DNA of 18,924 bases, taken from the NCBI GenBank assembly GCA_023212695.1, contig JALCCG010000364.1:1-18924 (forward strand), read 5' to 3'. The number at the start of each line of letters is the position of its first letter. Positions within the stretch are counted from its first letter, which is position 1. The DNA is from Sporisorium sorghi. Taxonomy: Eukaryota > Basidiomycota > Ustilaginomycetes > Ustilaginales > Ustilaginaceae. The notes under the pieces were generated by a model. That model ran no database searches. It was not told where the DNA came from and saw only the letters and a list, made by a program, of their open reading frames with translations. The position numbers were made by a program, and so were the translations under genes. This document shows, in pieces, positions 185 through 18,924 of this stretch.

Positions 185-1174
185 GCGATCCGCGATGCGC
201 AAGCGCACATCCTCTCTAGCGACGCGACGGCATGCGTATTTGGCGAAGACGTGGCGTTCGGCGGCGTATTCCGTTCCACCATGGGACTCGCCGAGACCTT
301 CGGACGCGACCGGGTCTTCAACACGCCCTTGACCGAGCAGGGGATCGTCGGTTTCGGGATTGGGATGGCGGACATGGGCCACACGGCGATCGCCGAAGTC
401 CAATTCGGCGACTACATCTTCCCCGCCTTTGACCAGATTGTCAACGAGGCGGCCAAGTACAATTACCGCTCTGGGGGTCAATTCTCGGCGGGGAAGCTGA
501 CGATCCGGGCGCCGTGCCAGGGCGTGGGGCATGGGGCGCTGTACCATTCGCAGAGTGTGGAGCAGTTCTTCATGCCTGTGCCGGGGATCAAGGTGGTGGT
601 GCCGCGCAGTCCGGTGCAGGCCAAGGGGCTGTTGGCTGCGAGTGTGCGGGACGAGAATCCCGTGGTGTTCTTGGAGCCAAAGATTCTGTACCGGTCGTCG
701 GTGGAGGAGGTGCCGCTGGACGAGTTTACCCTGCCGCTGAGTGAAGCCGATGTGGTGAAACCAGGTAGCGACGTGACGCTCATCTCGTGGGGCGCACCGC
801 TCTACTCGTGCATCGAGGCGCTCCAGGTGCTCGCCAACCCGCCCGCATCCATCGCCCAGCACTTCCCGCAAAGCGTGCGCCAGGCCAACGTCGAGGTGAT
901 CGACCTCCGCACCATCCTCCCCTGGGACCGCGAAACCGTCGCGCGCTCCGTCGCCAAGACGGGTCGCTGCGTCATCGTCCACGAGGCACCCGTCACTGCA
1001 GGTGTCGGAGCAGAGATCGCTGCGCACCTGCAGAAGACGTGCTTCCTCAATCTGGAGGCGCCGATCGCGCGTGTCGGTGGATGGGACACGCCCTTCCCGC
1101 ACGTCGGCGAGCTTTTTTACAAGCCCGAGGCGATTCGCATTGCTGATGCGCTCGTCAAGTGTTTGACTTTTTGA
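185..1174 (+). CDS. BCKDHB: Branched-chain 2-oxoacid dehydrogenase E1 subunit beta, 5'-truncated
   Basis: This is the beta subunit of the thiamine-diphosphate E1 component of the mitochondrial branched-chain 2-oxoacid dehydrogenase complex, which decarboxylates the keto acids of leucine, isoleucine and valine. The visible 329 residues match the family almost end to end: [12 protein letters not shown] near the start, then [11 protein letters not shown], the [20 protein letters not shown] segment, [26 protein letters not shown] and the C-terminal [14 protein letters not shown]. The FGED glutamate belongs to the cofactor site. Reading starts at the inferred acceptor (phase 0); the presequence and first residues of the mature protein, some 60 residues by comparison with the human protein, lie upstream of the window. 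A run of about ten extra residues (near [13 protein letters not shown]) precedes the EVIDLRT block. Its 3' end converges on the THO-complex gene, with 181 bp between the stop codons. The BCKDH assignment over pyruvate dehydrogenase beta rests on the GGVFR and [16 protein letters not shown] signatures. Confidence 0.93.
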
Positions 1175-1355
1175 AAAAAGCAAGAAGAATGTGTGTTTGC
1201 AATGCGATGAATTCAACGCTTTGACGCTGTGGTCGAGGTTTGTCGATCGTGCTGAAAGCCGAGTTGATACAAATGCAAGTGTTGGTGGATGCGATGCAGA
1301 GAGAACGACAAACGATGTTGAGGGTCTCAGACCGAGCCAGCCTTGCGGATCTTGT

Positions 1356-2474: not shown

Positions 2475-2680
2475 TGTGTGTCAGAGTCGCTTTGTAGCCG
2501 AGTCTTGCGCTTCGAGATGACTTGATGTAGGAGAGGAGAAGCAAGCAACGAGGACCCTTGAAGCCTCCACTCTCGCGGCGCGTCACGTGTGTTCTTGATG
2601 CGAATCTTCTTCTCGTACGAGTTGACTGCAGAAAAAGTGGCGAGAAGAACGTCGAAAGATGCACCCACCCCTACCCTCTC

Positions 2681-2732
2681 TTTTTTTCTTTTTTTCTTTT
2701 TCTTTTCTTTTTTTCTTTTTTTTTTTTTCTTT
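2681..2732. repeat. T-rich tract with interspersed C
   Basis: About 52 bp of T runs interrupted by single C bases lie between the divergent genes THOC3 and NDK1. On the THOC3 strand this is an A/G tract. It is low-complexity DNA and the likely nucleosome-free part of the promoter. Confidence 0.85.
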
Positions 2733-2780
2733 CGAGAGCCAAGTGCTTTTTCTGCTGCAGCTTCTTTCTTCTTCCAACCT

Positions 2781-2805
2781 GCGTGTGTGTGTGTGTGTGC
2801 GCGCG
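2781..2805. repeat. Alternating GT/GC repeat, Z-DNA-prone
   Basis: A 25 bp strictly alternating purine-pyrimidine run consists of GC, then repeated GT from about 2783 to 2799, then GCGCGCG. Such a sequence has a high tendency to flip to Z-DNA under negative supercoiling, which divergent transcription generates. The structure is a prediction from base order. Confidence 0.8.
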
Positions 2806-3012
2806 AACAACACAGACCCCCCCCCACACGCAGCTGAGAGCAGGCAGCGCACAAAGAGGATGGTGCGCCCTCGTTGCAGCTTGACAGAACTGGTGGTGCT
2901 CGCCGGTCTGTTGTTGGTCTCGTGCTGGTACAATCTTCGCTTTGTGACTCTTTCTTCTTCCACACCACCATCTTTTTCTACCTGTCCATCCCAGACAAAC
3001 CCAATCTTCAAA

Positions 3013-3561
3013 ATGGCTACCGAGCAGAGTAAGCACACTCCCTCCTCAACCAACCCTTGATGCTCTCGCTACTTCGACCCCGACGCTGACCTCTCCTCTC
3101 ATTCTTCTTCGCCGGCAGCCTACATCATGATCAAGCCGGACGGCGTGCAGCGCGGCATCGTTGGTGAGATCATCAAGCGCTTCGAAAATCGTGGCTACAA
3201 GATCGTCGCGCTCAAGATGGTCCAGGCCTCCGAGGAGCACCTCGAGAAGCACTACAAGGACCTCAAGGGCAAAAAGTTCTTCCCGGGCCTCATCAAGTAC
3301 ATGGCCTCTGGCCCCGTCGTCTGCATCGTCTTCGAGGGCAAGGACGCCGTCAAGACCGGCCGTGTGCTGCTCGGCGCTACCAACCCGCTCGACTCGGCTC
3401 CTGGTACCATCAGGGGCGACTTTGCCATCGACGTCGGTCGCAACGTGTGCCACGGCTCCGACTCGGTCGAGAGCGCTAAGGCCGAGATCGCGCTCTGGTT
3501 CGGCGAGCAGAACCCTACTATCAACTACACCCGTGCCGTTGACTCGTGGATCTACGAGTAA
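3013..3561 (+). CDS. NDK1: Nucleoside diphosphate kinase (spliced: 3013-3028 joined to 3119-3561)
   Basis: The spliced gene encodes 152 residues, the usual length for a group I NDP kinase, which transfers phosphate from ATP to other nucleoside diphosphates through a phosphohistidine. All active-site residues are present, one position before human NM23 numbering: Lys11, Tyr51, Arg87, Thr93, Arg104, Asn114 and the catalytic His117 in NVCHGSDS. The first exon is only 16 nt (MATEQ plus one base); splicing rebuilds a Thr codon and gives [18 protein letters not shown]. The start has good context (CAAAATGGC). Without splicing, translation would start at Met9 and lose the first strand, so the intron is needed for the full fold. 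The C-terminus WIYE is typical. It shares a promoter region with THOC3 and converges on the Ndt80-like gene, with 530 bp between the stops. Strong codon bias suggests high expression. Confidence 0.96.
3029..3118 (+). other. NDK1 intron
   Basis: This 90 nt intron has donor GTAAGC, branch site CTGAC at 3086-3090, a pyrimidine stretch and acceptor GGCAG. Joining restores an ACC codon (Thr6) and continues directly into the conserved IMIKPDG block, which fixes both splice sites. Confidence 0.93.
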
Positions 3562-3663
3562 GCGATTCGACGCTCATCGAGCCGCATCGCCGGTCGTCTT
3601 TGTCGGTCGTACCACTTGACGTTCCGCAACGAACAGAAACACATCATCTGATTTCAGAGACCG

Positions 3664-3689
3664 TCTCTCTCTCTCTCTCTCTCTCTCTC
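3664..3689. repeat. (CT)n microsatellite
   Basis: About thirteen CT units begin roughly 100 bp after the NDK1 stop codon, in the expected 3' untranslated region. Confidence 0.9.
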
Positions 3690-3909
3690 GACTGTGTATC
3701 TGCTGCCCATCTCATTCCACCTCACAGCAAGCCAAAGCAGTCTGGCCGCCGCACTCCGAGCCAATCGCCTCGAGAGCCAAGAGAGATCGCGACGTGCAAC
3801 AAAGGTGGGATTTCAGATCTCGAGTGAGAGGCGCAAAAGCATGTCGAGCTGTCAAGGCGTGGCGCCATACGAACGCTGAATGAGCTGAAGGATAGAGGGG
3901 TTGTCTCTT

Positions 3910-3911
<2 letters not shown>

Positions 3912-3952
<41 letters not shown>
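3912..3952. repeat. T41 homopolymer run
   Basis: Forty-one consecutive T lie 140 bp beyond the stop of the minus-strand Ndt80-like gene, so its primary transcript would carry a genomic A41. It would also end any RNA polymerase III transcript on the plus strand. The exact length in the assembly should be treated as approximate. Confidence 0.9.
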
Positions 3953-3953
<1 letters not shown>

Positions 3954-4091
3954 GCACGGTAGTGACGGATTCGGGGATTGCTGTGTATGTTGGGTAACAG
4001 GATAGATGGTATCTCGTGAGTGTGTTAGGGGTAAGCGGTTTACTGTCGTTGCTCGGTGTAGAAACATGCGTTTGAGAATGGCGTCGATGCT

Positions 4092-7000
4092 TCAGGTGAT
4101 GCTGCGGATGTCCATCACCCTGCAGACTCGCCTCTGCGATGCGGCGCTGCTCGAGCCAGACAACTCGCCCTCCTCCAATTCGTCGTCGGCGTCTTGCATC
4201 GTCTCGGCGGCCGCCTCCTGCGAGCTGGCACGCACGGCTGCCAGAAGTCGACGGCTGCTACGTCGCTGATCGGGAGACATGCTGCTGCTGCTGCTGCTGC
4301 TGTTCGTGCTGCGCGCGGGAATGCTGCGCTTCGAAGCGACTCCGGATGACGTCGTGGCCACGTTGGCAGCAGGACCTGCGGATGCCCTGCGAGATACGCT
4401 GCTCGCAGCCGCACTCTCCTTCTTCGTCGTGCCCGTCGATGGATGCGCATAGTGAACCTTGGAGCGACCCCGCACCGTGATCGGATGGCTGACCAGACTC
4501 GCCACCTCAACACCGCCGCTCACCGTCACGGCACCCTGCCTCGGATACGCCAGCAGCGTCAGCTTGAGCGCGTAAAACTGCTGGCTCGCTGCCCCACGTT
4601 GGCCGTTGTTCATCGTGGCCGAGCGGATCTGCACTCTTCGAAACGCGGCGATGGTGCCGGACCTAGTCGCGGCTTGCTCGTTGGCCGAAGCGTCCTTGAC
4701 AATGGTGCCACCGCTGCGCAGCTCGACGGGCTGCACCGCCTCGCGAGGGCCGCGTTCCCTGGCCGGGCCAAACTGGATGAGCGGCACAAGACCCTGGCGA
4801 CCCTTTTGCAGCCGGCCGTCGCTGTTGACGACGTGGGCGGTCATGTGAACGGCGAAGCGCTCGACCACAAACGGAGCACGGCCGGTGGGTTCGCAGATCA
4901 AGTCGCCTTGCACCTCGCCGCGGCGTCGGCCTTGCTCGTCCTCGAAATGAAACGAGACATCCACCTTGAGATCTGAAAGAAGGAACGCAGCGAGTGCGAG
5001 ACTGTGTGTCAGCATTCCATCCGGCGCACGGTTGTTGGACTTGATGGACCATCTTCGGCTTACAATTTCGACGATAGCAAGCCCATTTTCCGTCACTGTC
5101 GGAACCCATTCGAGAGAAAGACACACGCCAGCACTGTCAGTCACGGAAGCGGCCGACGATGGAGCTGGGAGAGTTCGCACTCACACAACGCTGAAGCACT
5201 GGTGCGAAGTCGAGTTGAGCTTGCAAAAGAGTCTGTTGGTCGGTCGTGAACGATGAGCGAAATAGAAGTCAGCTGGTACGCTCTTGCATTCTTTGGCAGG
5301 GCTGGAGTCTCGACTCACTTCTCCGTTGTGTTGCTGCCCCCCTGCTTGAGCGTGATAGGGAGGATCGCTTTCGGAGTCACAAAGATCTCGCCGGTGCGTC
5401 CCTCTTGCGGCAGTGGCAAATCTGGCTGCTCGATCACCACGCTGGGCGTGCTTCCATTCAGGACAGAGGAGCGCGTTGACATCGATGGTCCGATAAGAGG
5501 TTCATCCGAGTCCTGATCCTCACTGTCGTCGCTGCTCATATCCGCAAGAGGCGACATGGCACGTAGGATGGGCATCTTGTAGATGAAGCTGTCGTCCTTG
5601 ATCTTTGCGCCTGGTTTGGCTGCAGAGGCAGGGGCAACAGAGGGAGGCGAAGCGTCGTGAAGCCGGAGCGCGGGGAGGTCGAGAGACGGATCGATGTTGC
5701 TCCTGTTGAGGTCGTGGCGATGAGCGAGCGGGAGCAAGGTGAGCGAGTCGTCGCTGAGAGTCGAGGGCGACGGCAGCTGCGACGAAGCCTCGGACAGGAT
5801 CGCTGGCGAACGAGTGAGCACGCGGGATGGATTCCTCGTGTTGCCGCTGAGCAAGTTGATGCTGCTGCTGCTGGTGCCGCTGCTACCGCCTTGTCCCAGG
5901 AAAAAGTCGGCTTCGCTGCGTGGCGACGGGCCGCAATGAGCTGCTGGACCCAGGTCGAGATGCAGCACGTCCGACGGAAAGGGGTTGGGCTCCACAAAGA
6001 GGCCCAGCGCGTTGTCCGGTGTAGCGAGGTGAGAAGAGGGCAAGCGTGAGCCCATGGTCGCGCCTGGAGATCCTCCGTCTTCCTTCTTGGTGGGATCGCC
6101 GTAGAGAGGGCGCAGTTCAGCAGACGAGCCTTCTAGCTGAAGAGGCGCACCGAGGAAAGTGCGGCTGTTGGAAGGGCGGATGAAGCTGGTGTAGTCCTGG
6201 TGCACGCCGCTGGAAGTGGATCGAATGGAGCTCGTCGGCGTCTTTTGGCCTCTGTGTAGACAAGAAGAGAGGAAGGAGAGGAGCGGTTAGTACAAGCAAA
6301 GACCGCCTCTCTGGCGCGGAGCACTTGCGACACTTACGGGAACAGAGACATGGCCCTGATTTCACGAGCACCTCTCGAGGAGAATGGAGAGAGCGCAAAG
6401 TAGTCGTTCTGCTTGCGCGCTGGAGTGGAGATGAAGTAAGGGTTGCTTCTGTACTCGGCACCGTGGCGGAGAGAGGAGCGGATGGGGCCAAGGTGGTTGA
6501 GCTGACTGTTGAAATAATGTCCGAGCAGAGGAGGCAAGATGGGTCGACCGGAACCGTCAAGAGTGTGGGCTCTCGGCTTGGTAGGCGGCATCATCACGAG
6601 CGATGCGGCAGGCTCAGCTACACTGTGCTCTGTGCCGAGCAAGGGAGGAGAGCCTCTGCTGAGCTCAGGACCGGGAGAGGACTGCGCGACTTTCGACGAC
6701 ACGGTGAACGACACGCCGAGCTCGGCGCTGTCAGACGCCGCCGAACCGAGTGCGATGCGATCCAACATCAGAGAAGAAGAGGGCGTGTGCTGCGACAGTT
6801 TGCGTGCTCTCTGCGTGGACAAGGTCGGTGAGCTCTGCCAGACAGCGTTCCTGCTGCGTTGAAGATCCATTTCAGAGTGTGGACTGCGGAAACAGCCAGA
6901 GGTGTCCCGCGAATGTTCCGATGGCGACGGAAGGAGCTTGCTGCTGTGCGAAGAAGGCGGAGGTGTGAGGAGCAGGATAGGAGTCCAGTCGTATTCCTCT

Positions 7001-7398
7001 AGGCTCGTTGTTGCGGTGTCGCATCGAGCTGTGCACGAAAGAGGGCTGGAACCGCTCGAAGGCGCTTGCAGATGGTGGAGGTAATCGTGATCGCGATTAT
7101 CAAAGTGATGCCGAGTGAATGAGGATGAGGAGGAGAGAAGGAAAGGAGACGGTCGCTTGGAGGAGGAAGGACCGAGAGATCGAGAGTCTTTGAATTGGAA
7201 GGCAGCAGCAGCCGCAGAGTCCACCTTGGCTGGGATTGATAAGAACGAAGAAGAGGGCGGCAACGGATGAGGGGACGCGGCAAGAGGCGACGCCAGATTG
7301 GCGTCCTTATAGCTTCGTGTTGGCGTCTGCATCTGAGCGGCGGACAGCGGCGCTTGGTCAGCAAGCGACGGTGGCGGCGGCGACGAACTCGAGTCCAT
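4092..7398 (-). CDS. Ndt80/PhoG-type transcription factor, five exons
   Basis: Spliced exons are 7398-6338, 6251-5319, 5232-5185, 5095-5064 and 4972-4092, 2955 nt in all and in frame throughout, giving 984 residues. The first 650 residues are a serine/proline-rich low-complexity region without a known fold. The Ndt80/PhoG DNA-binding domain spans about residues 655-868: DGKWACYRRNY (junction of exons 4 and 5), LKVDVSF, ERFAVHMTA, then the family hallmark RSATMNNGQRGAASQQFYAL and finally PITVRGRSKVHY. The remaining tail has a polyserine run and an acidic DADDELEEGE patch. Family members are nuclear, bind immunoglobulin-fold-style to CRCAAA-type sites and govern meiosis, starvation or programmed cell death in ascomycetes; the role in this fungus is unknown. 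The start at 7398 is chosen because upstream in-frame sequence is only translated repeats. Converges on NDK1; faces a 4.7 kb gene-free upstream region. Confidence 0.88.
4973..5063 (-). other. Intron 4 of the Ndt80-like gene
   Basis: This 91 nt intron has donor GTAAGC, branch CTGAC and acceptor TTTCAG. Removing it joins RRN to YLKVDVSF, rebuilding the tyrosine expected after CYRRN in this family. Confidence 0.87.
5096..5184 (-). other. Intron 3 of the Ndt80-like gene
   Basis: This 89 nt intron has donor GTGAGT, a GTGACTGAC branch region and acceptor CCGACAG. This acceptor, not the earlier CTGACAG, is required to enter the DGKWACYRRN motif in the right frame. Confidence 0.82.
5233..5318 (-). 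other. Intron 2 of the Ndt80-like gene
   Basis: This 86 nt intron has donor GTGAGT, branch CTGAC and acceptor AACAG. Splicing rebuilds a lysine codon and avoids the stop that directly follows the unspliced exon. Confidence 0.85.
6252..6337 (-). other. Intron 1 of the Ndt80-like gene
   Basis: This 86 nt intron has donor GTAAGT, a perfect TACTAAC branch site (complement of 6286-6292) and acceptor ACACAG. It splits a proline codon and continues the serine/threonine-rich region in frame. Confidence 0.9.
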
Positions 7399-7497
7399 GG
7401 CGTTGTTGACTTGCAAGGCAGCAGAGCAGCAGAGCAGAACCAAGTGACAGAAGGAAGAGCTCTTCAAGCTCGGAAGAGCCGCTCGAGCGACACGCCG

Positions 7498-7499
<2 letters not shown>

Positions 7500-7530
<31 letters not shown>
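7500..7530. repeat. (TG)15 microsatellite
   Basis: Fifteen TG units lie about 100 bp upstream of the Ndt80-like start codon. It is a dinucleotide repeat with Z-DNA potential in the likely leader or proximal promoter. Confidence 0.92.
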
Positions 7531-7532
<2 letters not shown>

Positions 7533-7810
7533 CGGGAGCGAGGGCGAGGGCGAAGTTTCTATCGGAATGTACGCCGACACTGGAGAGCGCCTTGTTCGGA
7601 TCGTTTCGTCTGCGACGGCTCTGTCCGCTTCTCTGGTTCTGTGTCGGTGTCTGTGCTTGTGTTCTGATTGAGGCGCTGCGAAGCGGCTGCCACAGCTTGC
7701 CTTCTACTTTCTCTGTGAAAGGCAGGAAAAGTGAGCGTGAAGCGTTGACAGATCTCCTTGCTCGCTTGGCCTTCAGAGCAGCAACGACACCAACGAGCAG
7801 TGCAAGCCTC

Positions 7811-7829
7811 TTTTTTTTTTTTTTTTTTT
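7811..7829. repeat. T19 homopolymer run
   Basis: Nineteen T, read as A on the strand of the Ndt80-like gene, lie about 410 bp upstream of its start. This is a possible nucleosome-excluding promoter element. Confidence 0.85.
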
Positions 7830-8913
7830 GGTTTCTGTGCATGGAACGAATGACAGCAGCAGAGAGGATTTGTTTCGTGTGGCGCAACAGCAGAAGAGCC
7901 CGACGGAGTCAGCTTTTTTCTTCCGGCTGGGTCAACGAAGACCGCATTCGCATCGAGGCAGACGAATCGTGATATTCAGGGAGCAGCTTCGACCCGGCTG
8001 CCCAAAAGCGCAGTGCAGCAGCCGATCCGAAGAGAGAAGGTCTAGAACTCACCAGTTTTAGGTTAGCGACTCGCTCTCTGAACAGTGTCAACCAATTGAG
8101 AACTGGTGTCCAAGATGAGCAGCCGTGAGAACAGCGCTTTCGGGCTCGATCCGACTCGAGAAGAGGAGCAGTTGAATTCGACTTCTTCTTCCCACGCGAG
8201 TCTGTTCTGCGTCAAGGGCAAGATGCAGAGCAACACTGAAACAGAAGAAAAGATGGACCCGGAAGTGCCGACGCTTATCGTGGCTTCCGAGAGCAGTCTA
8301 AGCGAAGAGCGTGACACCCACACTTGAAGACGTCCAAATTCGGATACGGCTGCAGAGCGGTGGCGTGCTTGCTCTGCGATGACAGCTTTTTGACTTTCGG
8401 ATCGACCGTTGCCGTTGCCTTCAGAAAGAACACTGCAGCCAAGCAAAATCCAGACGCACCTGCCTATCGACGAGAGCGCAAAAGCTCCACGGTCCACTTG
8501 CGCCTGCGTGTTGCCAACAAGGGACGCGTCCTGGTCGCTGGTCGGATCAGCCGAGCTGATGGTTGCTCTCGCTTCTGGCGGTTGCAAAGCACCCTGAAGA
8601 ACGATCGAGGCAGGCGAGCGCAGTCGAGCGGCGAAGAACGCTGTTCCCACGCTCAGCTGCAGCTGCAAGAGAGGGAGAGAAGGTCTGAAAATGAAAATCG
8701 CTTCGTCGTCAGATCAGAGAAGCGTGAGCAGAAAAAGAAAAATAAGATCAAGCTCGGACCTTGTTCGAAAAAGCACGCTCTCCCTCTGCTCTCCGCTCTC
8801 TGCTCTCTACGCTGAGAACTGCCTTTCCTCGTCCGTTCTCGGCTAGCAATGCAAGCGAGCGGGCTGTACCGAAGGAAAGAGACTGCGGTTTTGTCTCTTC
8901 CTTGCCCTGCTTT

Positions 8914-8941
8914 CGGCAATGCCGGTGGTTCGGCAGTGCCG
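8914..8941. promoter_or_regulatory. Two 11 bp palindromes, CGGCANTGCCG, 17 bp apart
   Basis: CGGCAATGCCG at 8914-8924 and CGGCAGTGCCG at 8931-8941 are each perfect inverted repeats around one central base, that is CGG-N5-CCG. Inverted CGG triplets are the classic target layout for dimeric fungal Zn2Cys6 factors. They lie about 1.5 kb upstream of the Ndt80-like start. The site is seen; binding is inferred. Confidence 0.4.
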
Positions 8942-9413
8942 GCGAGGTGAGGCGAGGCGAGTCGAATCAACAGACTGAATGCAGACCGCGGCTTTTGCCC
9001 TCGTTCTGCGCTCTCTGTTTTGCGCTGGGTGTGAGTGTGCAAAGCCGTCGGAACGAAAATCAGTCAGTCAGCCGGAGAATCCGACAAGCTCTGAGATGGA
9101 AGCGAAGCGAGCTGACGGACGACGATTGAGCACGCTGCACGCACCTCTGCGTCCCGTGGCAGCAGCAGAGACAGGCAGGAGAACCGTCACAGTTCGAAGT
9201 CACAGAAGCTGAGTCAAGATCGTCACCACTTTGGGGTGAGAAAGAGAGAAACAGAGCGTTGCCTTGCCTTGTCTTTGACTCACCTTTGCGTGTGCGTGTG
9301 TTCGTGTCTGTGAGTGCTTTGGCACCTGCACTCTCGAAGTGGAGACTCGGCGAAATGGCAGTGTGCCGCTGCTGCTGCTGCGCTCGTGCGTGGATTTCGG
9401 TTCGTTTTGTGTG

Positions 9414-9440
9414 TTTTTTTTTTTTTTTTTTTTTTTTTTT
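9414..9440. repeat. T27 homopolymer run
   Basis: Twenty-seven consecutive T within the gene-free region; its length is approximate as for all such runs. Confidence 0.88.
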
Positions 9441-9492
9441 CTTCTCCTTGCAACAACTCGCGACGGATGGTTACGGCAGAGGCGGCAGGAGC

Positions 9493-9522
9493 GCAAAGGC
9501 CAGCTGGGCAAAGGCCAGCTGG
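9493..9522. repeat. 15 bp perfect tandem duplication
   Basis: GCAAAGGCCAGCTGG is present twice head to tail at 9493-9507 and 9508-9522 with no mismatch, suggesting a recent duplication. Confidence 0.9.
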
Positions 9523-11090
9523 ATTTTTCGACCCTCGACCCTTTCCCTCTGTCTCCTTTGGAATGGCGGCGCAGCGTTTGCCTGACTGACTGCCTAGCAG
9601 TGACCAAAAGAGTGATTCGACCGACTCGCTCGCTTGCTTGCAGAGCTTGCCACCACCACGACCAGCACCAACGCACGATTTCTCTTGGTAGCAACGTCGC
9701 CACTTCGATGACGAGTCTCGATGTTGAGCTGCAGGATGAGGCTAGCAACGAAGAGCGAGGTTTCGCTCTTCGAGTCCAGATCCGTTCCGAGAACAAGTCG
9801 AGACACCCAGTTACGACGACGACGATGACGACGCTGCAGACGGAGCGAGTATGACTTTGAAGAAGCGACGACGGTCAGCCGGGTGCCAAGAGATATGAGC
9901 GACGTTCACCCTCGCGTGTGTGCGAAAGCGATGGCGACTTGATGCGAGCACGGGGATAAGCGGGCCGCCTCCTTCTGCTTGACTGCTCCACCGACGACTA
10001 AGTGCGGCGCACGTCTTGCTTCCACACTTACTTGCTTGTCGAGTTTGGGCACAGCCTCTGGGCTCCTGTTGTTGTTGCTACGTTCTCTGCCGCTCTCGAC
10101 TGCCTCTGTCCTACAGAAGGTGGCGAACCAAGTTGCGCAGCTGCTCAGCTGCTCGACGGCGATAGGTGCACGAGGCCGGCGCAATCGAACAAGCGAGGTC
10201 AGATCGGGGCTTCGCTTTCGGTATTAGGCGGCTGCTCGGCAACAGGGAGACGGAGACTTCTTGCGCAAGTCGTCTGGGCAAAAGCAAATGCCGCTGGTAC
10301 GTAGCCCCTTCGCCGTCCGTCCCGAGTTCGCTGGTACACGCTCGTGTTGCGCAGCTGAGCGTTCCGATTCGATCGAATGACGTACTGCGACCGGCCTTGA
10401 CCAGCAGCTGTTCTGATTGGGTATCACCTGCGAATGGGAGCGCTTCCCACCAAATCGATCCAGATTTCTTCTGCGTTACAGGTGGCGAACGAATGAATGT
10501 GAAAAAGGAGAGACGCTGTGTCGAGACAAGCGAGACGGAGCTGCAGCTGTAGGAAAGTAAACGAGGGTGCAAGAAAGAGGGATCTGCGTCGAAAGGAAAA
10601 GAAGGCGGATCAAAGTGCTCCGTGACCAAGTCGAGCTTTTGAGGGGCAGACGATTCGCAGCCAGCGTGGGAAGCTGGCATACAAGGACGTTGCACAACGT
10701 CAGCTCTCGCTCGACTCTATGATAGGACAGCTCCAAGAACTCGCACCTTCCCGGGCCAGCTGAAGACCAGCTGCATCCGATACGCAGCGCTGGGATGGCA
10801 CGACCAACATCTTCTCTATGCTCAAGAAGCTCCGCAACCATAACGGCAAACTGGCAAGCACTTCGGGAAAAGCAGCGGCAGGCAGCTACTCGAAGCTCAT
10901 CTTGCCGCCATCTCGGCGCAGTGAGCTCTTGCTCGAGCTACACCAATGCGCATCACAGAGTTTCCGGTAAGCTCTGGCTCGACAACGACGTTGCGGGCGG
11001 ATCACTCGACCCGGTGGCAAAAAGCAAGACCAGAGCGGAGCATGGTATCAGCTCTTTTGAGGCGTTGACGCAGAACAGCGACACTTCAGC

Positions 11091-11104
11091 CGGCAATCGG
11101 CAAT
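11091..11104. repeat. CGGCAAT tandem pair
   Basis: The 7-mer CGGCAAT occurs twice in direct succession. The same word occurs at 8914 and 11898 and, as inverted arms, near 14643-14665. Confidence 0.6.
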
Positions 11105-11738
11105 GGTGACCGGTTACACTCTCCTCGAGCTTGTCACTCCTCTTCGTGATCAGCTTGCTGGCACCTTGCTCGTCATCGGTAGCGGCACGTCTAACTCAAA
11201 CGAACCAAGTTCGCCCGGCAAGCTTGGTTTAGCCCGAGGCTTCGAGAAGCAACACCGACTCGGACAACACAGCCGCAGACAAGCCGACGACAGGACAAAG
11301 TTGAACTGGGACAAGCTGTCATCACTGCTTAGTCTCTGAACAGAGAGTAGATTTCGTTCCAGACTCAGGCTCGATGTCTACACAGCAGATTTACACGCTC
11401 GCTTCCCATCTTGGGCTGCTTGTCAGCTCTCGCAAAACGGCAACAACAAGAACGACGACAAGCTCCAAGCCGATTCTCTGTCATCGCCATTCCCTCTTCG
11501 ACGACAAGCTCGTAGACGAGAGTTTCGCCGGCCTCATAGCTTCGAGACATTCTTCCAACATCTCAATCCCAGAACCTAACCTTGGCGATGAAAGAAGGAT
11601 CGTGGCGATCTCATCGCGAGAGCCGAACGTCAAACATCCCCACCAGAATGCAATACCTTAATTGTGGGCGGCTCGTCGCTGTCGAGCTTGCATTTTGACG
11701 TGCCGGTCGCCGGCGTTTGCCTATCCGGCGAGAGGTTC

Positions 11739-11750
11739 TTTGCCGGCAAA
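11739..11750. promoter_or_regulatory. 12 bp palindrome TTTGCCGGCAAA
   Basis: A perfect palindrome about 370 bp beyond the 3' end of the oxidase gene, in a stretch with several CCGG words. It could be a dimeric factor site; there is no further support. Confidence 0.25.
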
Positions 11751-12114
11751 AGCGACAGATGCGATCCCGCTGGTCAACCTCATGGTTCCGATGACAAACT
11801 CAGCGTCTACTCCGCATGCACACCGTGCAGATGAAAGAAACTCGGAATGGTGGGGCTGTCATGCATATGTACGTGCGCCACGAAGTTTAACCGGTGCCGG
11901 CAATGCAATTCCTCCCTCGCGTCCGAAAGTAGAGGGCTTTTGGCCGTCATTACGGTGTTGATGGATGGATTGGCTCAGCAGTTGCCAAGCTCGTCTGGTG
12001 ATCACGATCAAAGGTGTTTTAGCAGGGAACGTGATGATGGGTGGTAAGTGATGCCGAGCTCTAGTGCACTCGAGAGAAACATGCTGAACAGAAACGATGC
12101 GCAGATCGCAAAGA

Positions 12115-13401
12115 TTAGGCCGTCTTTTCGGCCGCAGCAGCAGCACTGGAGCCGTCGCCGAGATCCTTGCCCTTGGCCCATTCGAGCGCCTCTTCACGCT
12201 CCAAGCCGTAGATCTCTGCGCGCATCTTTGCCGGTGGCTCGCGCAGTGCGAATGGGTTGGGATCGTCGGCCTCGAGCGAGGCAAACGTGTGGTTGATGTG
12301 TCGATGCGTTGCCTCGTCGGCGCGAACAGCTCGGATGACGTCGACGAGCATGGCGTTGTCGCCGAGCTGCCAATACTGCTTGGCGATCTCGGGTGCGGGC
12401 AGGACCTCCCACTCGGGCAGTCGTCCCTCCTTCAGGTCCTCGAGGATGAACGAGTAGGTGAGCACGGCTTCCTCCTCGAGCACGCCGACGAACCGGTGCG
12501 CCACCTTGGGCGAGACCAGGTAGAAGACGAAGAAGAAGTTGTAGAAGACGCCTTGAGCAAGTAGGACGAACATGCGGGCGATCCATCCAGGCTTTGGTCC
12601 TAGCGACATGAAGGTCAAAAGATGCATGCGCTCGTTCTCGGCGTCCTCGAGCATGGTGTGGATCCATCCCTTGTCCTTCTTCATCAATCGGAGGCTCTGG
12701 AGGTGGCGACAGGTGGCGGCGACCATGCCCGGCACGCCGGCGATGGTTTCGAGGAAGATGATGCGGTTCAGCCAGCCGTCCGGGCCGAAGCAGAGTCCCT
12801 TTGCGCGCATCTCTCGCAGCGTCATGGCTCCGTCGTTCTTGGCGAGCTCGTCGAGATCGGCGCCGGTCTCATTGACGACCGGCTTGGCATTGGCATCATC
12901 CTTGGAGTGCTGGAAGCGCTGCACGAGCCTGGACGAGGGCAGCGCGACGGTCTTTTCGACGTCCTCCTTCTTGATGGGCGGGAACTTGACGCCCGTGTGA
13001 TCCGGATAGCGCGTGGCCATGTCAAAGATGGTGCGTGCCGTGGTGCACATGGCTTTGGCGACCTTGTCACCGAACGTCTTGCTCTGGCGATGCACGACCT
13101 TGACGCTGTCGAGATCGCTCTCCGAGTAGATCGGGTGGAAGAGCAGGTAGCTGCCGTCCGGATGCTTGAGACCCGGTGTGCCCGGTCGGTCTTTGGCCTG
13201 CACGGCGCTTTTGTGCGATGGCGTAGGTTCTGATGATGTCGAGTAGGCGCGTCGGGACGAAGAGGATGATGAAGAGGCGAAAGGGTGGTGCTGGAGTCGT
13301 GCCATGTTGGCGAGGATAGCATGCCTGCTGGCGGTGGTGCCACTGTACGCGCCGACGACGGCGGCAGAGGCGGCACATGTGAGTGGTCTACCGACCTGCA
13401 T
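12115..13401 (-). CDS. AOX1: Alternative oxidase, mitochondrial
   Basis: This intronless gene encodes 428 residues of the cyanide-insensitive ubiquinol oxidase of the inner mitochondrial membrane, which passes electrons from ubiquinol to oxygen without pumping protons. The diiron ligand motifs are all present: LET (Glu218), NERMH (Glu257, His260), LEEEA (309-311) and RADEATH (Glu363, His366). The hydrophobic stretch at about 277-296 fits the monotopic membrane surface of the family. The N-terminus is arginine/serine-rich with a RRAYST sequence near residue 50 that resembles a processing-peptidase site. The frame extends upstream to 13476, but that end is a TTG; 13401 is the first ATG. A TATA box about 110 bp upstream supports this start. 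The long serine-rich presequence and C-terminal alanine run are normal fungal variation. A repeat-derived block begins about 1.25 kb upstream. Confidence 0.96.
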   Translation of the reverse strand: MQVGRPLTCAASAAVVGAYSGTTASRHAILANMARLQHHPFASSSSSSSRRAYSTSSEPTPSHKSAVQAKDRPGTPGLKHPDGSYLLFHPIYSESDLDSVKVVHRQSKTFGDKVAKAMCTTARTIFDMATRYPDHTGVKFPPIKKEDVEKTVALPSSRLVQRFQHSKDDANAKPVVNETGADLDELAKNDGAMTLREMRAKGLCFGPDGWLNRIIFLETIAGVPGMVAATCRHLQSLRLMKKDKGWIHTMLEDAENERMHLLTFMSLGPKPGWIARMFVLLAQGVFYNFFFVFYLVSPKVAHRFVGVLEEEAVLTYSFILEDLKEGRLPEWEVLPAPEIAKQYWQLGDNAMLVDVIRAVRADEATHRHINHTFASLEADDPNPFALREPPAKMRAEIYGLEREEALEWAKGKDLGDGSSAAAAAEKTA

Positions 13402-13507
13402 GGTTGTTGTTAGTCGTTGCTGTTGTTGCTTGCGTTGGTACGTTGGATGGAGATAGTGAATGATGGTCTTGGTCAATCCAGAGTCGAGGACAGAGAATGG
13501 CCGATGC

Positions 13508-13513
13508 TATATA
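13508..13513 (-). promoter_or_regulatory. TATA box of the alternative oxidase gene
   Basis: TATATA on the minus strand, in GTATATAGC, lies about 107 bp before the ATG. Initiation some 30 bp downstream would give a leader of about 75 nt containing CAA repeats. A TATA box fits a stress-induced gene such as an alternative oxidase. Confidence 0.5.
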
Positions 13514-14663
13514 CAACTTGGAACGAAGGCTAGGAGACACTCGGGACGCCTGCCACAAGGGCAATGACGGGAGGGACCACAAGCAGGAAGGACACGGGCC
13601 ACCGGTCGGCTGCTCGCGGGCTGCTCGTGGGCTGCTTCGGTAAGTGAAATAGACTCGGCGCAATTGGATGGCAGCCTCTCCGAGTTGACACGCACGCACA
13701 CGCCTTTCGCTCGCCAAGCTGACCACTCCGACCGGCTTGCCGAGGAAGCGCCTCGTTTACCGATGCAGAACCGTGCATGGACCTTGGATAAACATGCGTT
13801 TTTAATTGCAAGCGAACAAGACACGCAGCCCGAGCAGCGATCGAACCTCGGCTTTCGTCATCCACTTGCAGCGGGTCGGTCTTCGCATGACAAAGAGAGG
13901 TGAGAGGCGAGAGACGGACACAGTGACAGAGACAAGGCGAGCTTCGACAGAGGAAGTGTGCTTGCTGCCCACACAGACGAGGGCGCTGTTCGACGGATTC
14001 CCTAAATTCTCCGAGACCGTGCGCTGCAAGTACCCTTTTCTTCCTCGTGCCGGGCAGCACCGTGTAAGGGCAGCCTGACATTTCCTTTGCGCGATGCTTT
14101 TGTAATGTCGGCTGTCAAAGGACGCCGCAGACAGCATCCTTGGGCTCCGCTCCAATCGCGCAAGAGGGTCTGTCTAGTCTTCTCGCCTCGTGTGCGTTAG
14201 TGGCAAACAGCACAGCACTGCATTTGCTAACAAGATGTGAACTTCGAGCATCGTCTTTCGTGCATCGTTCGATTGGCACTTGGTAGGCTTGGGGTTACCA
14301 AGTTGCGCGCAAAGCTTGCAGTCCTCACAGGGGAGCTTTGAGATCTTGTGACCCGCGGGTCGTGCGGAAGCGCAGTCGAGAGACAAGCTGCAACATCTCC
14401 AGCGGACCCTTTCTCCGGTCTATTTTCGTCTCGGTAGAGATCGGTAAACGCGCCGCCCTCTTCCGACCTGGGCCATCCGTGGCTCCCACATCACGCCCCG
14501 CTTTCCCTTTGTGTACCAACTTGACTCGCACTGAAAAGTCTGCTCAGGCTCGTCTCTCACAACAGAACCAAGTCGTTTGGCAGCTTCCCAACATTGGATG
14601 TCTGGAAAAAAAAAAAAGGCAACATTGGGCTGTGTACCTTCCATCGGCAAACAAACATTGCCG
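13514..14663. other. Upstream region of the alternative oxidase gene, no gene seen
   Basis: About 1.15 kb of CpG-rich native-type DNA. ORFs up to 183 codons exist, but none shows a family motif. It should include the oxidase promoter. A12 occurs at 14606-14617. It ends at an abrupt change in composition. Confidence 0.6.
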
Positions 14664-14665
14664 AT
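14643..14665. repeat. Inverted repeat ATCGGCAA-N7-TTGCCGAT
   Basis: Perfect 8 bp arms with a 7 nt spacer. The arms carry the CGGCAA word also seen in the gene-free region. It sits exactly at the left edge of the CpG-depleted block and holds the last CpG before it. Confidence 0.6.
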
Positions 14666-14685
14666 CTGCTAGGCAGTGGCTTCTG

Positions 14686-14763
14686 TCACTCTAGCAACTT
14701 CTTGTACACCTTGATCTTCCTCACACACTTGTGTTCATCTATTTTCTTGCTGCTAAGGTCCAT
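14686..14763 (-). pseudogene. Short basic peptide ORF, possible coding remnant
   Basis: A 25-codon reading frame begins MDLSSKKIDEH and ends KVYKKLLE before a stop at the left edge of the block. The lysine-rich, amphipathic wording looks protein-like, but it is too short to assign and may be chance. Confidence 0.15.
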
Positions 14764-14780
14764 GAAATAAATCACAACCT

Positions 14781-15290
14781 ACAGTCACATCCATAACCAT
14801 CCCACATCTTTCAAATTCTTGTTCCAAAAATTTGGGATTCTAAGCTGCAGAGCACTACACCATCTCAAAGCTACAATCCTTCCCAAAAATGATCACCTCC
14901 TTTTTTGTGCAATTCTTCTAAGACACAGTTAAAATGAGTATAGTTTCAAGCTCCAAAGTTTTACAAGCTGCAATATTCCAGCAATTTTTATGTAAATGAA
15001 TGACCTGCAGACCAAAGGATGCAAAATCACACTTTGGGGCACTTCATCGGTGTAGTTTTAAACCACTACAACACACTCAAGAAAAATGGATGGCCCCTTG
15101 TTTTGGTGTGAGATTGTAGCCATATATAGCATTTGTCAGCTCCAGGTGCCAGAAAAATGTGTGCATTTCCTTGTATTAATGTGTTGATCATTCTTGTGAG
15201 GTATGGTACTTTGAGATGGTGTGGTGCTGTGGAGCTTAGATTTTGACCAATTGCAGAACTAAATGTGGGTAAATTTTAGATGTGACTGGA
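14781..15290. repeat. Fold-back (inverted-repeat) element of about 510 bp
   Basis: The left arm (about 14781-14891) and right arm (about 15185-15288) are inverted copies around a centre of about 290 bp. The best part is 14839-14870 against 15209-15240, 29 of 32 bases identical. Similarity resumes outward at GATGTGACTG (right) with CAGTCACATC (left) and inward at GATCATT. The centre has its own small hairpin (GTGTAGT with ACTACAACAC) near 15050-15073. It resembles a miniature inverted-repeat element without coding capacity. Flanking duplications are not obvious. Confidence 0.6.
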
Positions 15291-15473
15291 AGAAAGTTGG
15301 TCTTTTGGCTGTCAGCAACTCTGCTTGGCCAATTTTCTATAGGCTCAATTCCAGCAGCTGGCTCAGCAGTGTGAGTCATGGATGGTTGCCCTTTGTGACC
15401 ACATCAGAGCTATCAACCCTCTGTTCACAAGGTCAACTGCGCTATCATCAGCAACACTCATGTGCTCCAAGCC

Positions 15474-15761
15474 ATGTACCCAACAATATGGGCTTATTGC
15501 ATCCAGTACACCTTCAACTTCCTCTCACTGTTCCCTGGTGATGAGGTTCTGACAGACCCCAGTCTTCACCCAGGTGGCTTCAGCTACATCAAAGGTTCAG
15601 CTTACATCAAGATTCTTTGTGACATTGATGTCCTCTGCAGTCACATTGATCATTTCTTCAACAAGGCCAGACTGCCTTTGCTTGGTTGCCGGTGCAAATC
15701 CCTTTCACAAAACATGGGGCATCTAGCATCACTCAAGAAAATCCCTTGGCTTGGAAACTAA
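15474..15761 (+). pseudogene. Decayed ORF fragment, unknown family
   Basis: The frame reads MYPTIWAYCIQYTF, then FSLFPGDEV-like and GGFSYIKGSAYIK segments, 95 codons from the first ATG. The amino-acid composition is protein-like, but I do not recognise the family. It lacks a sensible upstream start and runs into the 122 bp repeat. It is probably a relic of the coding part of a repeat. Confidence 0.25.
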
Positions 15762-15776
15762 CATATAGAGGACGTT

Positions 15777-15898
15777 GTTATGGATCACATTGGGATGGGT
15801 TGATTGTGAAGGGATCAGGAGATTGGTTGACTCAACTCGGTGGCTGCAGCATTGGCCACTGGGAGCGGAGGCTGCTCTGGGCATGGTGTGAAGTCTCC
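15777..15898 (+). repeat. 122 bp dispersed repeat, left copy
   Basis: This copy aligns without gaps to the reverse complement of 17647-17768, about 77% identical by eye, with 20 transitions and 8 transversions. Identical cores include the GGCTGCAGCATTGGCCAC and CTCTGGGCATGG words. Translated, both give GCSIGH..RLLWAW. No CpG is shared between the copies. Confidence 0.85.
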
Positions 15899-16042
15899 AA
15901 CCTCCTTCTTCTCGATGATTGTATTTTACGGTGGCCTGCTATAGCCATCTCTGGTCCACCAACAGCCACAGCACTTCACATAACAGCACACAAGAAGCCA
16001 TTCAACAACACTATCAAAGACCACGGGGTGTAATCCAAGAAA

Positions 16043-16693
16043 ATGCACAACAACATGGTGCTTGAAGCCAATATCACCGAGCCCTTCAATGCCAGCGAGC
16101 ATGCTGAGGAGGATGCTAACTTTGCTGCAGAGGCTGCACCGTTTCACCACAACATGGTACTCACCGAACATGGCCATCACATTGGCACTGTCAAACCTGG
16201 ACCAACCCTGCAGCTCGAGGACACCCTGGCTGACCTGGAGCAACTCATCCACGACACCAGCATGGCTTTTCCGGGCATGACCAAACTGTGGTGGATGGGC
16301 AGAAACATGGGAGAGATGCACTTTGTGCTTATTGGATACCTCGAATCCACCCGCCTTCACAACAACAATGTTGAGGATCTCGTACACACATTCCAGACTG
16401 TGGAGCAGAGGGCAGTCGACCTGGGAGTACCTATCAACAACTCCATCCTGGCCGATCTCTTCCAATGCAGGTTTGATGGCCACCCCATCGGAGCCGCCAG
16501 ATACGACACTTTCGACTGGACCACTGCTGCCCTCCTTTGCCAGGCAGCACTGGTGCGGAACTATGCCATCGAGTCACTGGCTCACAACATGACTCAGGAG
16601 GAGATCTTCAACTCTCTCCACAGACCATCAATGCTCAGGAATAGGCGTGACCATGACTGGTCGACTCAACAACACTCCATCTGTCTCAACTAG
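16043..16693 (+). CDS. Uncharacterised ORF of 216 residues inside the repeat block
   Basis: This is the only long ATG-started ORF in the block. It is richer in GC than its surroundings (about 53-55%) and somewhat richer in CpG, which suggests a former coding constraint. The protein has an acidic N-terminal half (NASEHAEEDANFAAEA), a segment around WWMGRNMGEMHFVLIGYLEST, and a C-terminal helical part (FDWTTAALLCQAALVRNYA). No signal peptide, membrane segment, zinc knuckle or protease motif is visible. It could be a gag-like or captured gene of a mobile element, or a relic lacking exons. An antisense ORF covers part of it, which I take as a shadow. I do not recognise a function. Confidence 0.35.
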   Translation: MHNNMVLEANITEPFNASEHAEEDANFAAEAAPFHHNMVLTEHGHHIGTVKPGPTLQLEDTLADLEQLIHDTSMAFPGMTKLWWMGRNMGEMHFVLIGYLESTRLHNNNVEDLVHTFQTVEQRAVDLGVPINNSILADLFQCRFDGHPIGAARYDTFDWTTAALLCQAALVRNYAIESLAHNMTQEEIFNSLHRPSMLRNRRDHDWSTQQHSICLN

Positions 16694-16867
16694 TCATATG
16701 GCAATGTCAACCATTCACTCATCAAACATGCGGAGCCTGAGGACAACATCATTTGGGGAGGCTTGCCCTCTCACTCACCTAGACGGTGAGCCCAGGTTAT
16801 AACCACCCTGCTCTTGAGACTTGGTCTGGAGGGTAGGAGGCTGTGTCACTGACCCAGGTTGTGTGGG

Positions 16868-16887
16868 CATGTTCATCCATGAACATG
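16868..16887. repeat. 20 bp palindrome with 9 bp arms
   Basis: CATGTTCAT and ATGAACATG are perfect inverted arms separated by two C. In single-stranded DNA or RNA they would form a tight hairpin. Confidence 0.7.
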
Positions 16888-16997
16888 GTGGTGTCTGGGA
16901 TGACTCTGAGCGAGAAAGGGTGCTCCACAGGACTGTCATTGCCTCCCTGCAAGTTATGCGCCTGGGGTCTGAGAATCTCAACACGAAGAGAGAGCCA

Positions 16998-17063
16998 CCT
17001 TGCATATGAAGTCACCAACCTTGAAAGGAGAGGGGCCTTGCATGTGAAGTTGCTCATCTCGTA
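16998..17063. repeat. Degenerate minisatellite units, first cluster
   Basis: Two units of about 38 bp start CCTTGCATATGAAGTCAC and CCTTGCATGTGAAGTTGC. A related pair occurs about 530 bp downstream in the same orientation. Confidence 0.5.
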
Positions 17064-17273
17064 CACAAGCCAGTCTTAGCTGCAAGGTCAAGCAGACGAC
17101 AGCTATTGAGGCCAGCAAGGAGGTGCTGGGTGCTAGTGGCCCACATTGATGCCAAACAGGGGTGGGACAGATGCGAGTGGGTCCAAGCTCTTGGCCCACT
17201 GCAGGTTCATGTGGGATGAGTGGGAGGAGGAGGAGAAGGGTGGTTGACGTGGCCAGAGACTATGGGGCTGCTG

Positions 17274-17458
17274 TATATAAGCCACAACTTCACGATGGTG
17301 GACAGGCAAGAGCCCATCCACTCTATCATATACCTTCTTTATAATAAGCTCAGCTTCTTCACAGTCTCTTAGTATTATCAGCTGCAGCATTCACTAGACT
17401 CGATACAAGCCTCAAGGTCACCTGGGTTTTGTACGGGAGCATTACAAGTTATACAACA
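17274..17458 (+). mobile_element. Possible 3' part of an LTR (TATA box to AACA end)
   Basis: TATATAA at 17274-17280, followed by GCCACAAC, looks like an LTR promoter. About 180 bp on, ATTACAAGTTATACAACA is followed by CCATCAGAGCATG, whose ATCAGAGCATG part (17461-17471) resembles the initiator-methionine tRNA primer-binding site of Ty1/copia elements (usually TGGTATCAGAGC). The first four bases of the site do not fit, no 5' LTR end starting TGTTG was found, and no pol region follows. If real, this is a degraded remnant. A weaker similar promoter word (TTTTTAAGCCACAAG) lies near 17994. Confidence 0.25.
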
Positions 17459-17529
17459 CCATCAGAGCATGCTGCATTGCCTCTGAACAAGGTGACCACA
17501 AGGATCAGTCAGCTTCAAAGACAAAGGCT

Positions 17530-17605
17530 CGCTAGTTTTGAGTTCACCAGCCTTGTAGACAAGCACTGCTTACTTATGAGCTCAGCAACTTTGAATGTTA
17601 GGTAG
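17530..17605. repeat. Degenerate minisatellite units, second cluster
   Basis: Units near GAGTTCACCAGCCTTG and GAGCTCAGCAACTTTG repeat the pattern of the cluster at 16998-17063. On the minus strand they continue in the frame of the right 122 bp repeat (VAELISK and STRLVNSKLASL). Confidence 0.45.
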
Positions 17606-17646
17606 TTTTCCTTAGAGCCCAGAAGCCAGGTGCACAACCCTTGACA

Positions 17647-17768
17647 GGAGGCTTCGTACCATGCCCAGAGTAGCCTCTGCTCACGGTGGCCAATGCTGCA
17701 GCCTTTGGGTCGAGCCACTGGATCTCCTGATCCACTTGCAATCGCACCATCCTGGAGCGATCCATAAC
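17647..17768 (-). repeat. 122 bp dispersed repeat, right copy (inverted)
   Basis: This is the inverted partner of 15777-15898. It lies within a 132-codon minus-strand ORF (17515-17913) that is probably not a gene but the frame of the repeat. This copy keeps five CpGs where the left copy has TpG or CpA, and has CpA at the two places where the left copy keeps a CpG. Confidence 0.85.
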
Positions 17769-18047
17769 ATGCACCAACCGTTCGGTTGCACCTTATTGGA
17801 AACTGAGGGATGCCAGTGGAGCAACCAAGGCAATCAATTGCAAGGTGTACAAGTTCTTTGACACAAGTCAATGAGACAGAAGGCAAGTAGCTAATTTGCT
17901 GAGGTCTCTGCAAATGGCAAGTTGGCTTGTAGGGCTGGATCTAAAAGGCCTGACATTAGACTGGATCCAAGATGACATTAGTCCAGATATGGCTTTTTAA
18001 GCCACAAGGGATTGCTGTCTTAGGCAGCAGTGGACCAAAGTGTCCCT

Positions 18048-18806
18048 CGCTTGCTCTTCAGGGCTACTCATCAGACGTGCTCGATGATCTCATCTCTGTC
18101 TGTCAGTGTTTGGAATCTGCACCTTCATTGCCAAGATGGTAAAGGCGCATCTGCCCGCCGAAAAGGGTACACTTCTCTTTGAATGGGACACTGACAGGCT
18201 ACTAGCTTCGACTTTCGTTACTGGCGTTGAGCACTTGAGAGGTTGCACGAGTTTGTCTGAGCGCATTCTGCCTTACGCAGCTCGACGCCACTTGTTCGAC
18301 GCCGAGGATGCACACTTGATGTGCGTACCGCGTGTCGGTTGAACAGCATGCACTGGCTCTGCGCCATCGGTCAGCATGCTTGTCTAGTCAGACAAAGCAG
18401 TCTCTGCCGCCCCCGGGCTTGTCTCGTTTCAGTCTGCTGGAAAGCTATCCCTCGCTTGACATGCCTGCTCACCAGGTTTCGTACTGGTCCATCCGTTCTC
18501 CTCTCCATCGCACTCTTCGCTCGTCGCACGCTTCTGCTCTGCCGCAGCTCGCGCTCTGCTCAGTACTATTATTGACAGGCTCTCCTTCTGCAAGCTCTGT
18601 TCTTGTCATCAAGATGTTTCGGTCTGTCTTGTCGCTGGTGGCACTTTCAACGCAGCAGCTGTGCACCTGGTTCGCAATTCCTCTTGCTGTGCATCTCAGA
18701 TACTTCAGATCTCTGCATCCTACATCTCGATTTGAGTGTCTGTTGATGTGATTGAGCTGTTCCATACAATCCGAACCTTCTCTCTCGAGCTTGGTGCCGC
18801 TTACGA

Positions 18807-18807
<1 letters not shown>
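18048..18807. other. Native-type DNA right of the repeat block, no recognised gene
   Basis: CpG frequency returns abruptly to the level of the left flank. A 68-codon plus ORF from an ATG at 18136 to 18342 (MVKAHLPAEKGTLLFEWDTD at its start) has protein-like wording and could be an exon, but lacks a family match or clear splice sites. Nothing else is supported. Confidence 0.4.

Positions 18808-18839
<32 letters not shown>
18808..18839. repeat. C32 homopolymer run
   Basis: Thirty-two C, followed by an almost pure pyrimidine tail to the window end. This mirrors the C26 run and pyrimidine sequence at the start. Confidence 0.9.
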
Positions 18840-18924
18840 TTGTGGTGTGTTTGCTCTTCTCCCCTCTCCTTTTTTTTTTTCTACCCCCTTCTTCCTTTTT
18901 CCTTCCCTTCCCTCTTTTCCTTTT

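What the first reader, a model, noticed from the sequence alone, without database searches (positions are those of the whole stretch)
14664..18047. A sharply bounded CpG-depleted block in an otherwise CpG-rich contig
By direct reading, CpG is absent for 384 bp (14664-15047), again for about 390 bp (15050-15439) and for 263 bp (17785-18047). I count roughly 50 CpG in the 3.4 kb, where base composition alone would predict nearly 190. The flanks show no depletion. TE-targeted cytosine methylation in basidiomycetes would produce this; so would a join with DNA of another fungus. Some smuts (Ustilago maydis) are reported to lack DNA methylation, so in a smut this would be informative either way.
Basis: partly seen in the sequence, partly recalled or inferred. 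Interest (0 to 1): 0.8.

Follow-up and report, generated by a model that had tools for sequence, protein, structure and literature searches.

The report
Methylation-worn transposon graveyard in a smut
The CpG-poor stretch is a pile of old mobile-element fragments whose CpG sites have turned into TG or CA, most likely through cytosine methylation, in a smut fungus that still carries genes for the methylation enzymes; this is a known kind of genome wear.

Summary
In detail: 49 CpG against 198.5 expected in 14664-18047 (obs/exp 0.25), against 1.10 for the 14.66 kb to the left. The block is at least partly a mosaic of degenerate repeats: a foldback, an inverted-repeat pair, and two families with copies on other contigs of the same genome. 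The right edge of depletion is the end of a repeat (18042; next CpG 18048). Where another copy keeps CG, the block has TG or CA in 212 of 285 cells and CG in 24; GC control sites are kept in 361 of 505. At 26 sites where at least half of the other copies keep CG, the block keeps none, so the loss is its own. There is no TCG preference. The genome encodes a DNMT5 with an open frame and a DNMT1-like enzyme, whose best named relatives are Sporisorium proteins. Best reading: CpG methylation of transposons followed by deamination; methylation itself was not measured. CpG-poor repeats are already reported in U. hordei and U. bromivora. A foreign or chimeric origin is not supported.

The parts
14501..14663 (.). 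Left transition zone, moderately CpG-poor (5 of 8.6 expected)
   Evidence: Three-piece likelihood fit starts at 14501; composition
14664..18047 (.). CpG-depleted block, CpG obs/exp 0.25, TpG/CpA excess
14782..15288 (.). Foldback, MITE-like element with imperfect terminal inverted repeats, CpG obs/exp 0.05; no copy found elsewhere in the genome
   Evidence: Inverted arms 14782-14807/15263-15288 and 14839-14870/15209-15240; own-genome search; composition; the type is inferred
15776..15929 (+). Left member of an inverted repeat pair; aligned copies in 4 of 20 fetched loci
   Evidence: 76% inverted match to 17647-17769; 80-84% to L018, L020, L022, L028
16034..16693 (+). Open frame of 219 codons, no Pfam match, no homologue found; gag-like by eye only
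17107..17646 (.). Dispersed repeat family, about 540 bp
   Evidence: 67-82% matches; first half in 9 and second half in 10 of the 20 fetched loci
17647..17769 (-). Right member of the inverted repeat pair
17787..18042 (.). Dispersed repeat family, about 250 bp, no CpG here; its end is the right edge of the block
   Evidence: 9 copies in 8 of 20 fetched loci, 73-76%; next CpG at 18048
18048..18924 (.). Right flank, partly CpG-depleted; a poly-C run near the contig end
   Evidence: obs/exp 0.76

Best explanation
The block is a nest of old transposable-element fragments in a Sporisorium-like smut. CpG sites in these repeats were (and may still be) methylated by the host's DNMT5 and DNMT1-like enzymes, and methylated cytosine deaminated to T, on either strand, over time. 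Shown: the depletion; the repeat nature of about 1.07 kb of the 3.38 kb by matches elsewhere in the genome, and a foldback of 0.5 kb by its own inverted arms; a CG to TG/CA exchange that is this copy's own; and genes for both enzyme types. Inferred: that the cytosines are methylated, that these enzymes do it, and that the unmatched parts of the block are also transposon remains.
For: Repeats: 59 own-genome matches to the block, of which 5 lie in the window itself and 54 on 27 other contigs. Substitutions: other copy CG, block TG or CA 212 of 285, CG 24 of 285; GC control kept 361 of 505. At columns with 5 or more copies where at least half of the others keep CG, the block keeps 0 of 26 (22 TG/CA, 4 other); the other copies, tested in the same way, keep 82 of 162. 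Of 82 columns inferred as ancestral CpG the block has CA 38, TG 31, CG 7, the rest other. Both-strand TA products are rare, 0.5% of 6048 cells. In the 20 fetched repeat loci plus window, repeat-covered DNA has obs/exp 0.495 (41.0 kb), uncovered 0.946 (162.3 kb). Native gene loci: 0 of 77 500-bp windows below 0.5, minimum 0.83; the six block windows are 0.04-0.46. Some relatives of the block's repeats are hardly depleted (pieces in L014, L024 and L028 at 1.03-1.14). Enzymes: DNMT5 on C469, open frame of 2522 codons, best PDB match 7r76 with 1536 bits; DNMT1-like on C177. One SRA-domain gene on C428.
Against: No methylation data. Non-CpG transitions are also common (456 transitions against 91 transversions in 4137 cells outside CpG-like columns), so CpG decay is not the only change. 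By single C context, the difference between 'other C, block T' and 'block C, other T' is small (CG 0.411 against 0.333, CA 0.188 against 0.153), because other copies are decayed too; the CA figure there includes CA to TG exchanges. 14664-15775 and 15930-17106 have few or no relatives at DNA level, so their transposon origin rests on the foldback and on composition. Two copia loci with long open frames (646 and 743 codons) are also CpG-poor (0.34, 0.38), so part of the depletion could be inherited from an element lineage. The repeat loci were chosen because they hold relatives of the block; no unbiased sample of the genome was had. In U. hordei one study reports that recent LTR elements themselves do not show the high 'CG substitution' fraction of their flanks (PMC9603552, passage read; what that measure counts I did not check).
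Confidence: 0.85

Rival explanations
1. A RIP-like process: repeats are recognised as duplicates during sex and mutated C to T in a burst, with CpG as the preferred site.
For: Copies differ mainly by transitions, outside CpG-like columns too. RIP-like signatures are reported for smuts (PMC5106213, PMC4081816, PMC12210899, passages read).
Against: No TCG preference: CG is kept in 40% of TCG cells and 32-34% of ACG, CCG and GCG cells. The CpA preference of Neurospora RIP (recalled) is not seen: CA to TA in 32 of 619 cells, CT to TT in 64 of 434. Of the ten PF00145 matches only those on C177 and C469 look fungal, a DNMT1-like gene and DNMT5; no RID was seen, though no RID-specific search was made. 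Copies of one family range widely in CpG level, which suits slow decay.
Confidence: 0.1
2. The block is CpG-poor because the element lineages had themselves become CpG-poor under long methylation, and were inserted in that state.
For: Copia loci L041 and L042 have obs/exp 0.34 and 0.38 with frames of 646 and 743 codons.
Against: In the block the losses are private: 0 of 26 CG kept where at least half of the other copies keep it. Some pieces of the same families are near normal (1.03-1.14 in L014, L024, L028). For the parts without relatives (14664-15775, 15930-17106) this cannot be told.
Confidence: 0.1
3. The block is foreign DNA or an assembly chimera.
For: The assembly does hold contigs that look bacterial (C112, C439, C211, by reading the frames).
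Against: Block repeats match 27 other contigs of the assembly, 13 of the 20 fetched loci with CpG-normal DNA on both sides; the right edge is a repeat end.
Confidence: 0.03

Closest known systems
CpG-depleted repeats of Ustilago hordei and U. bromivora
   Same: Smut fungi; CpG lack in repeats by dinucleotide frequency, less so in Melanopsichium (PMC5106213, passage read)
   Different: Here a Sporisorium-like genome; private CG to TG/CA exchange, a context test and the enzyme genes are shown for one locus and its relatives
CpG effect in transposons of Microbotryum lychnidis-dioicae
   Same: CpG-biased transitions in transposon copies, which its authors link to maintenance methylation (PMC4469406, passages read)
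   Different: Different subphylum; the TCG context recalled for Microbotryum is not seen here
DNMT5 (PDB 7r76, deposited as DNA repair protein Rad8; that it is Cryptococcus Dnmt5 is recalled)
   Same: DNA_methylase, SNF2 and helicase C domains in one chain
   Different: Activity not tested here
Neurospora RIP (features recalled)
   Same: C to T transitions in repeats
   Different: CpG rather than CpA; no RID seen among the PF00145 matches

Membership tests
CpG-methylation decay of transposons | CpG deficit with TpG/CpA excess | tested here: met
   CG 0.25, TG 1.45, CA 1.60
CpG-methylation decay of transposons | Deficit concentrated in repeats | tested here: met
   Repeat-covered 0.495 against 0.946 uncovered in chosen loci; native gene loci 0 of 77 windows below 0.5; not genome-wide
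CpG-methylation decay of transposons | CG in one copy, TG or CA in another | tested here: met
   212 of 285
CpG-methylation decay of transposons | 5mC present at the locus | not testable with these tools
   No methylation data
CpG-methylation decay of transposons | CpG methyltransferase genes in the genome | tested here: met
   DNMT5 and DNMT1-like
Neurospora-type RIP | CpA preference (recalled) | tested here: not met
   CA to TA 32 of 619, CT to TT 64 of 434
Neurospora-type RIP | RID methyltransferase | tested here: inconclusive
   PF00145 search shows two fungal-looking loci, DNMT1-like and DNMT5; no RID-specific search
Microbotryum-type TCG hypermutation | TCG context (recalled, no call) | tested here: not met
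   CG kept more often in TCG (0.403 of 2278) than in ACG, CCG, GCG (0.319-0.343)
DNMT5 | Methylase plus SNF2 fusion | tested here: met
   PF00145, PF00176, PF00271; 7r76
DNMT1 with RFD | Replication foci domain | tested here: not met
   No such Pfam match at E <= 1 in 7 smut proteins; weak BAH in 3 of 7, best E 0.005

The most novel reading that the evidence does not exclude
In grass smuts, transposon lineages have adapted to lasting CpG methylation: copia loci with long open frames are themselves CpG-poor (0.34-0.38), and a short DNMT1-like enzyme without an RFD match, kept in part of the family, acts beside DNMT5, so that the reported loss of methyltransferases in U. maydis would be a natural experiment on transposon control.
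Probability: 0.2. Interest if true: 0.5.

Novelty: new member of a known kind. Interest (0 to 1): 0.3.

Why it matters
It shows at one locus that CpG decay of repeats goes with the presence of DNMT5 and a DNMT1-like gene in a smut, while U. maydis is reported to have no methyltransferase (PMC7862722, PMC13297926, passages read). Comparing repeats of smuts with and without these genes would date the loss and test what methylation does to transposons.

Tried and rejected
Foreign origin or chimera: rejected on repeat matches and their flanks. TCG-type hypermutation and Neurospora-type RIP: rejected on context. A coding identity for the 219-codon frame: no Pfam family at E <= 1, no second copy in the genome, no homologue at E <= 1e-3 among 330 candidates. 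The first change-point fit picked the complement of the block because its model was symmetric; redone as a three-piece fit. Placing the fungus by species: only as a Sporisorium-like smut, by DNMT5 96% to S. scitamineum over the searched region and the DNMT1-like protein 70% to S. reilianum. Papers not held: Laurie et al. 2012 and 2013, Horns et al. 2012; what I know of them is recalled. One paper search found nothing.

Full report
Observation. The block 14664-18047 has 49 CpG where base composition gives 198.5; obs/exp 0.25 against 1.10 to the left. In 2000 shuffles the minimum was 168. TpG (1.45) and CpA (1.60) are in excess. Depletion is unequal inside: 14664-15775 is nearly CpG-free (4 CpG), the open frame 16034-16693 is milder (0.44), the 250-bp repeat at the right end has none. 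The right edge is sharp (repeat end 18042, next CpG 18048). The right flank is partly depleted (0.81-0.87) and the left edge is a transition from 14501.

What it is made of. A search of the genome in which the window lies (23.17 Mb, 469 contigs) gave 59 matches, 5 of them in the window itself and 54 on 27 other contigs (the tool calls its counts lower bounds). With 20 fetched loci, 36 HSPs fall into these groups: 15776-15929, in 4 loci, whose inverted partner is 17647-17769; 17107-17395 in 9 loci and 17398-17653 in 10 (a family of about 540 bp); and 17787-18042 (9 copies in 8 loci). Together they cover about 1.07 kb of the block. A foldback lies at 14782-15288; no copy of it was found elsewhere. 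The inverted pair begins TGTTATGGATC and ends with its complement, but I see no target-site duplication. No protein family was found in the frames tested and the 219-codon frame has no relative; that it looks gag-like is my own reading. In C306 a copia reverse transcriptase (13652-14383) lies between a 540-family and a 250-family copy on the same strand, so these two may be parts of one retroelement; this is a lead, not a test.

How the CpG went. Where a relative keeps CG, the block has CA 120, TG 92, CG 24 of 285; GC sites are kept 361 of 505. Losses are private: 0 of 26 kept at columns where at least half of the others keep CG; the other copies, tested in the same way, keep 82 of 162. Over all pairs among the 21 sequences, CG meets CG in 36%, TG in 29%, CA in 28% and TA in 0.5% of 6048 cells, and GC meets GC in 69% of 11243 (pairs are counted from both sides and are not independent). 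TCG is not preferred; retention by 5' neighbour is 0.32-0.40 and by 3' neighbour 0.32-0.39. This is what deamination of methylated CpG on either strand leaves. Against a clean picture: other transitions are also frequent (0.11 against 0.022 transversions outside CpG-like columns), and a test by single C context shows only a weak direction.

Generality. In the fetched loci, chosen because they hold relatives of the block, repeat-covered DNA has obs/exp 0.495 and the rest 0.946. In 13 of the 20 the level returns to 0.9 or more (best 1-kb window) on both sides of the match, in 19 on at least one; in L009 no flanking 1-kb window reached 0.9. In native gene loci (DNMT5, Ago, DNMT1-like, SRA, RdRP and window 1-14500) none of 77 windows of 500 bp falls below 0.5. 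Four copia loci found by protein have 0.34, 0.38, 0.66 and 0.65. No unbiased sample of the genome could be taken.

Enzymes and organism. PF00145 gives ten matches. C439, C112 and C211 carry frames that look bacterial and are probably contamination (by reading; the second C439 match was not read). The fungal ones are C177, a DNMT1-like gene read in two frames, probably two exons, and C469, a DNMT5 with methylase, SNF2 and helicase domains whose best PDB match is 7r76. The DNMT1-like protein is 70% identical to a Sporisorium reilianum protein and has named relatives in Kalmanozyma, U. trichophora, Melanopsichium, Pseudozyma hubeiensis, U. hordei and Testicularia (120 listed of 312, many without a name); it has no RFD match, and a weak BAH match occurs in 3 of 7 smut members. 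DNMT5 is 96% identical over the searched region to a protein of S. scitamineum and is listed for many Ustilaginomycotina. U. maydis is not named in either list, but only 120 of 783 were shown and some rows have no name, so this is no proof of absence. One Argonaute match, RdRP matches at three places (two of them with a stop inside, which may be introns) and one SRA-domain gene are present.

Known or new. CpG-poor repeats are reported for U. hordei and U. bromivora, less in Melanopsichium (PMC5106213, passage); RIP-like mutation in U. hordei repeats (PMC4081816, passage); and a CpG effect in Microbotryum transposons (PMC4469406, passages). U. maydis is reported without methyltransferases (PMC7862722, PMC13297926, passages), although HPLC values listed in PMC7862722 and restriction-based work cited in PMC7409079 (passages) report 5mC in it. 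PMC9603552 (passage) reports that recent LTR elements of U. hordei do not share the high CG-substitution fraction of their flanks. A search for Sporisorium with DNA methylation, transposable elements and CpG gave three papers, none on Sporisorium methylation by title. The finding is a new member of a known kind.

Noticed in passing
L029, L030, L031, L033, L034, L036 (contigs C439, C112, C211): Contigs with bacterial-looking genes, several cytosine methyltransferases among them; the fungal assembly seems contaminated, perhaps by a Paenibacillus relative (the name is a guess).
   Followed up: partly
L041, L042 (contigs C350, C56): Copia loci with open frames of 646 and 743 codons are themselves CpG-poor (0.34, 0.38), which hints at CpG-poor element lineages rather than only dead copies.
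   Followed up: partly
L032 (contig C177): DNMT1-like protein of smuts lacks an RFD match and relatives show at best a weak BAH; its class (DNMT1, DNMTX or other) is unsettled.
   Followed up: partly
window 18809-18841: Run of C of about 30 bases near the contig end, perhaps the reason why assembly stops.
   Followed up: no
window 1356-2480, 3061-3561, 4092-5180, 12115-13506: Native genes in the left part by Pfam: THOC3-like WD40, nucleoside diphosphate kinase, NDT80/PhoG-like, alternative oxidase.
   Followed up: yes
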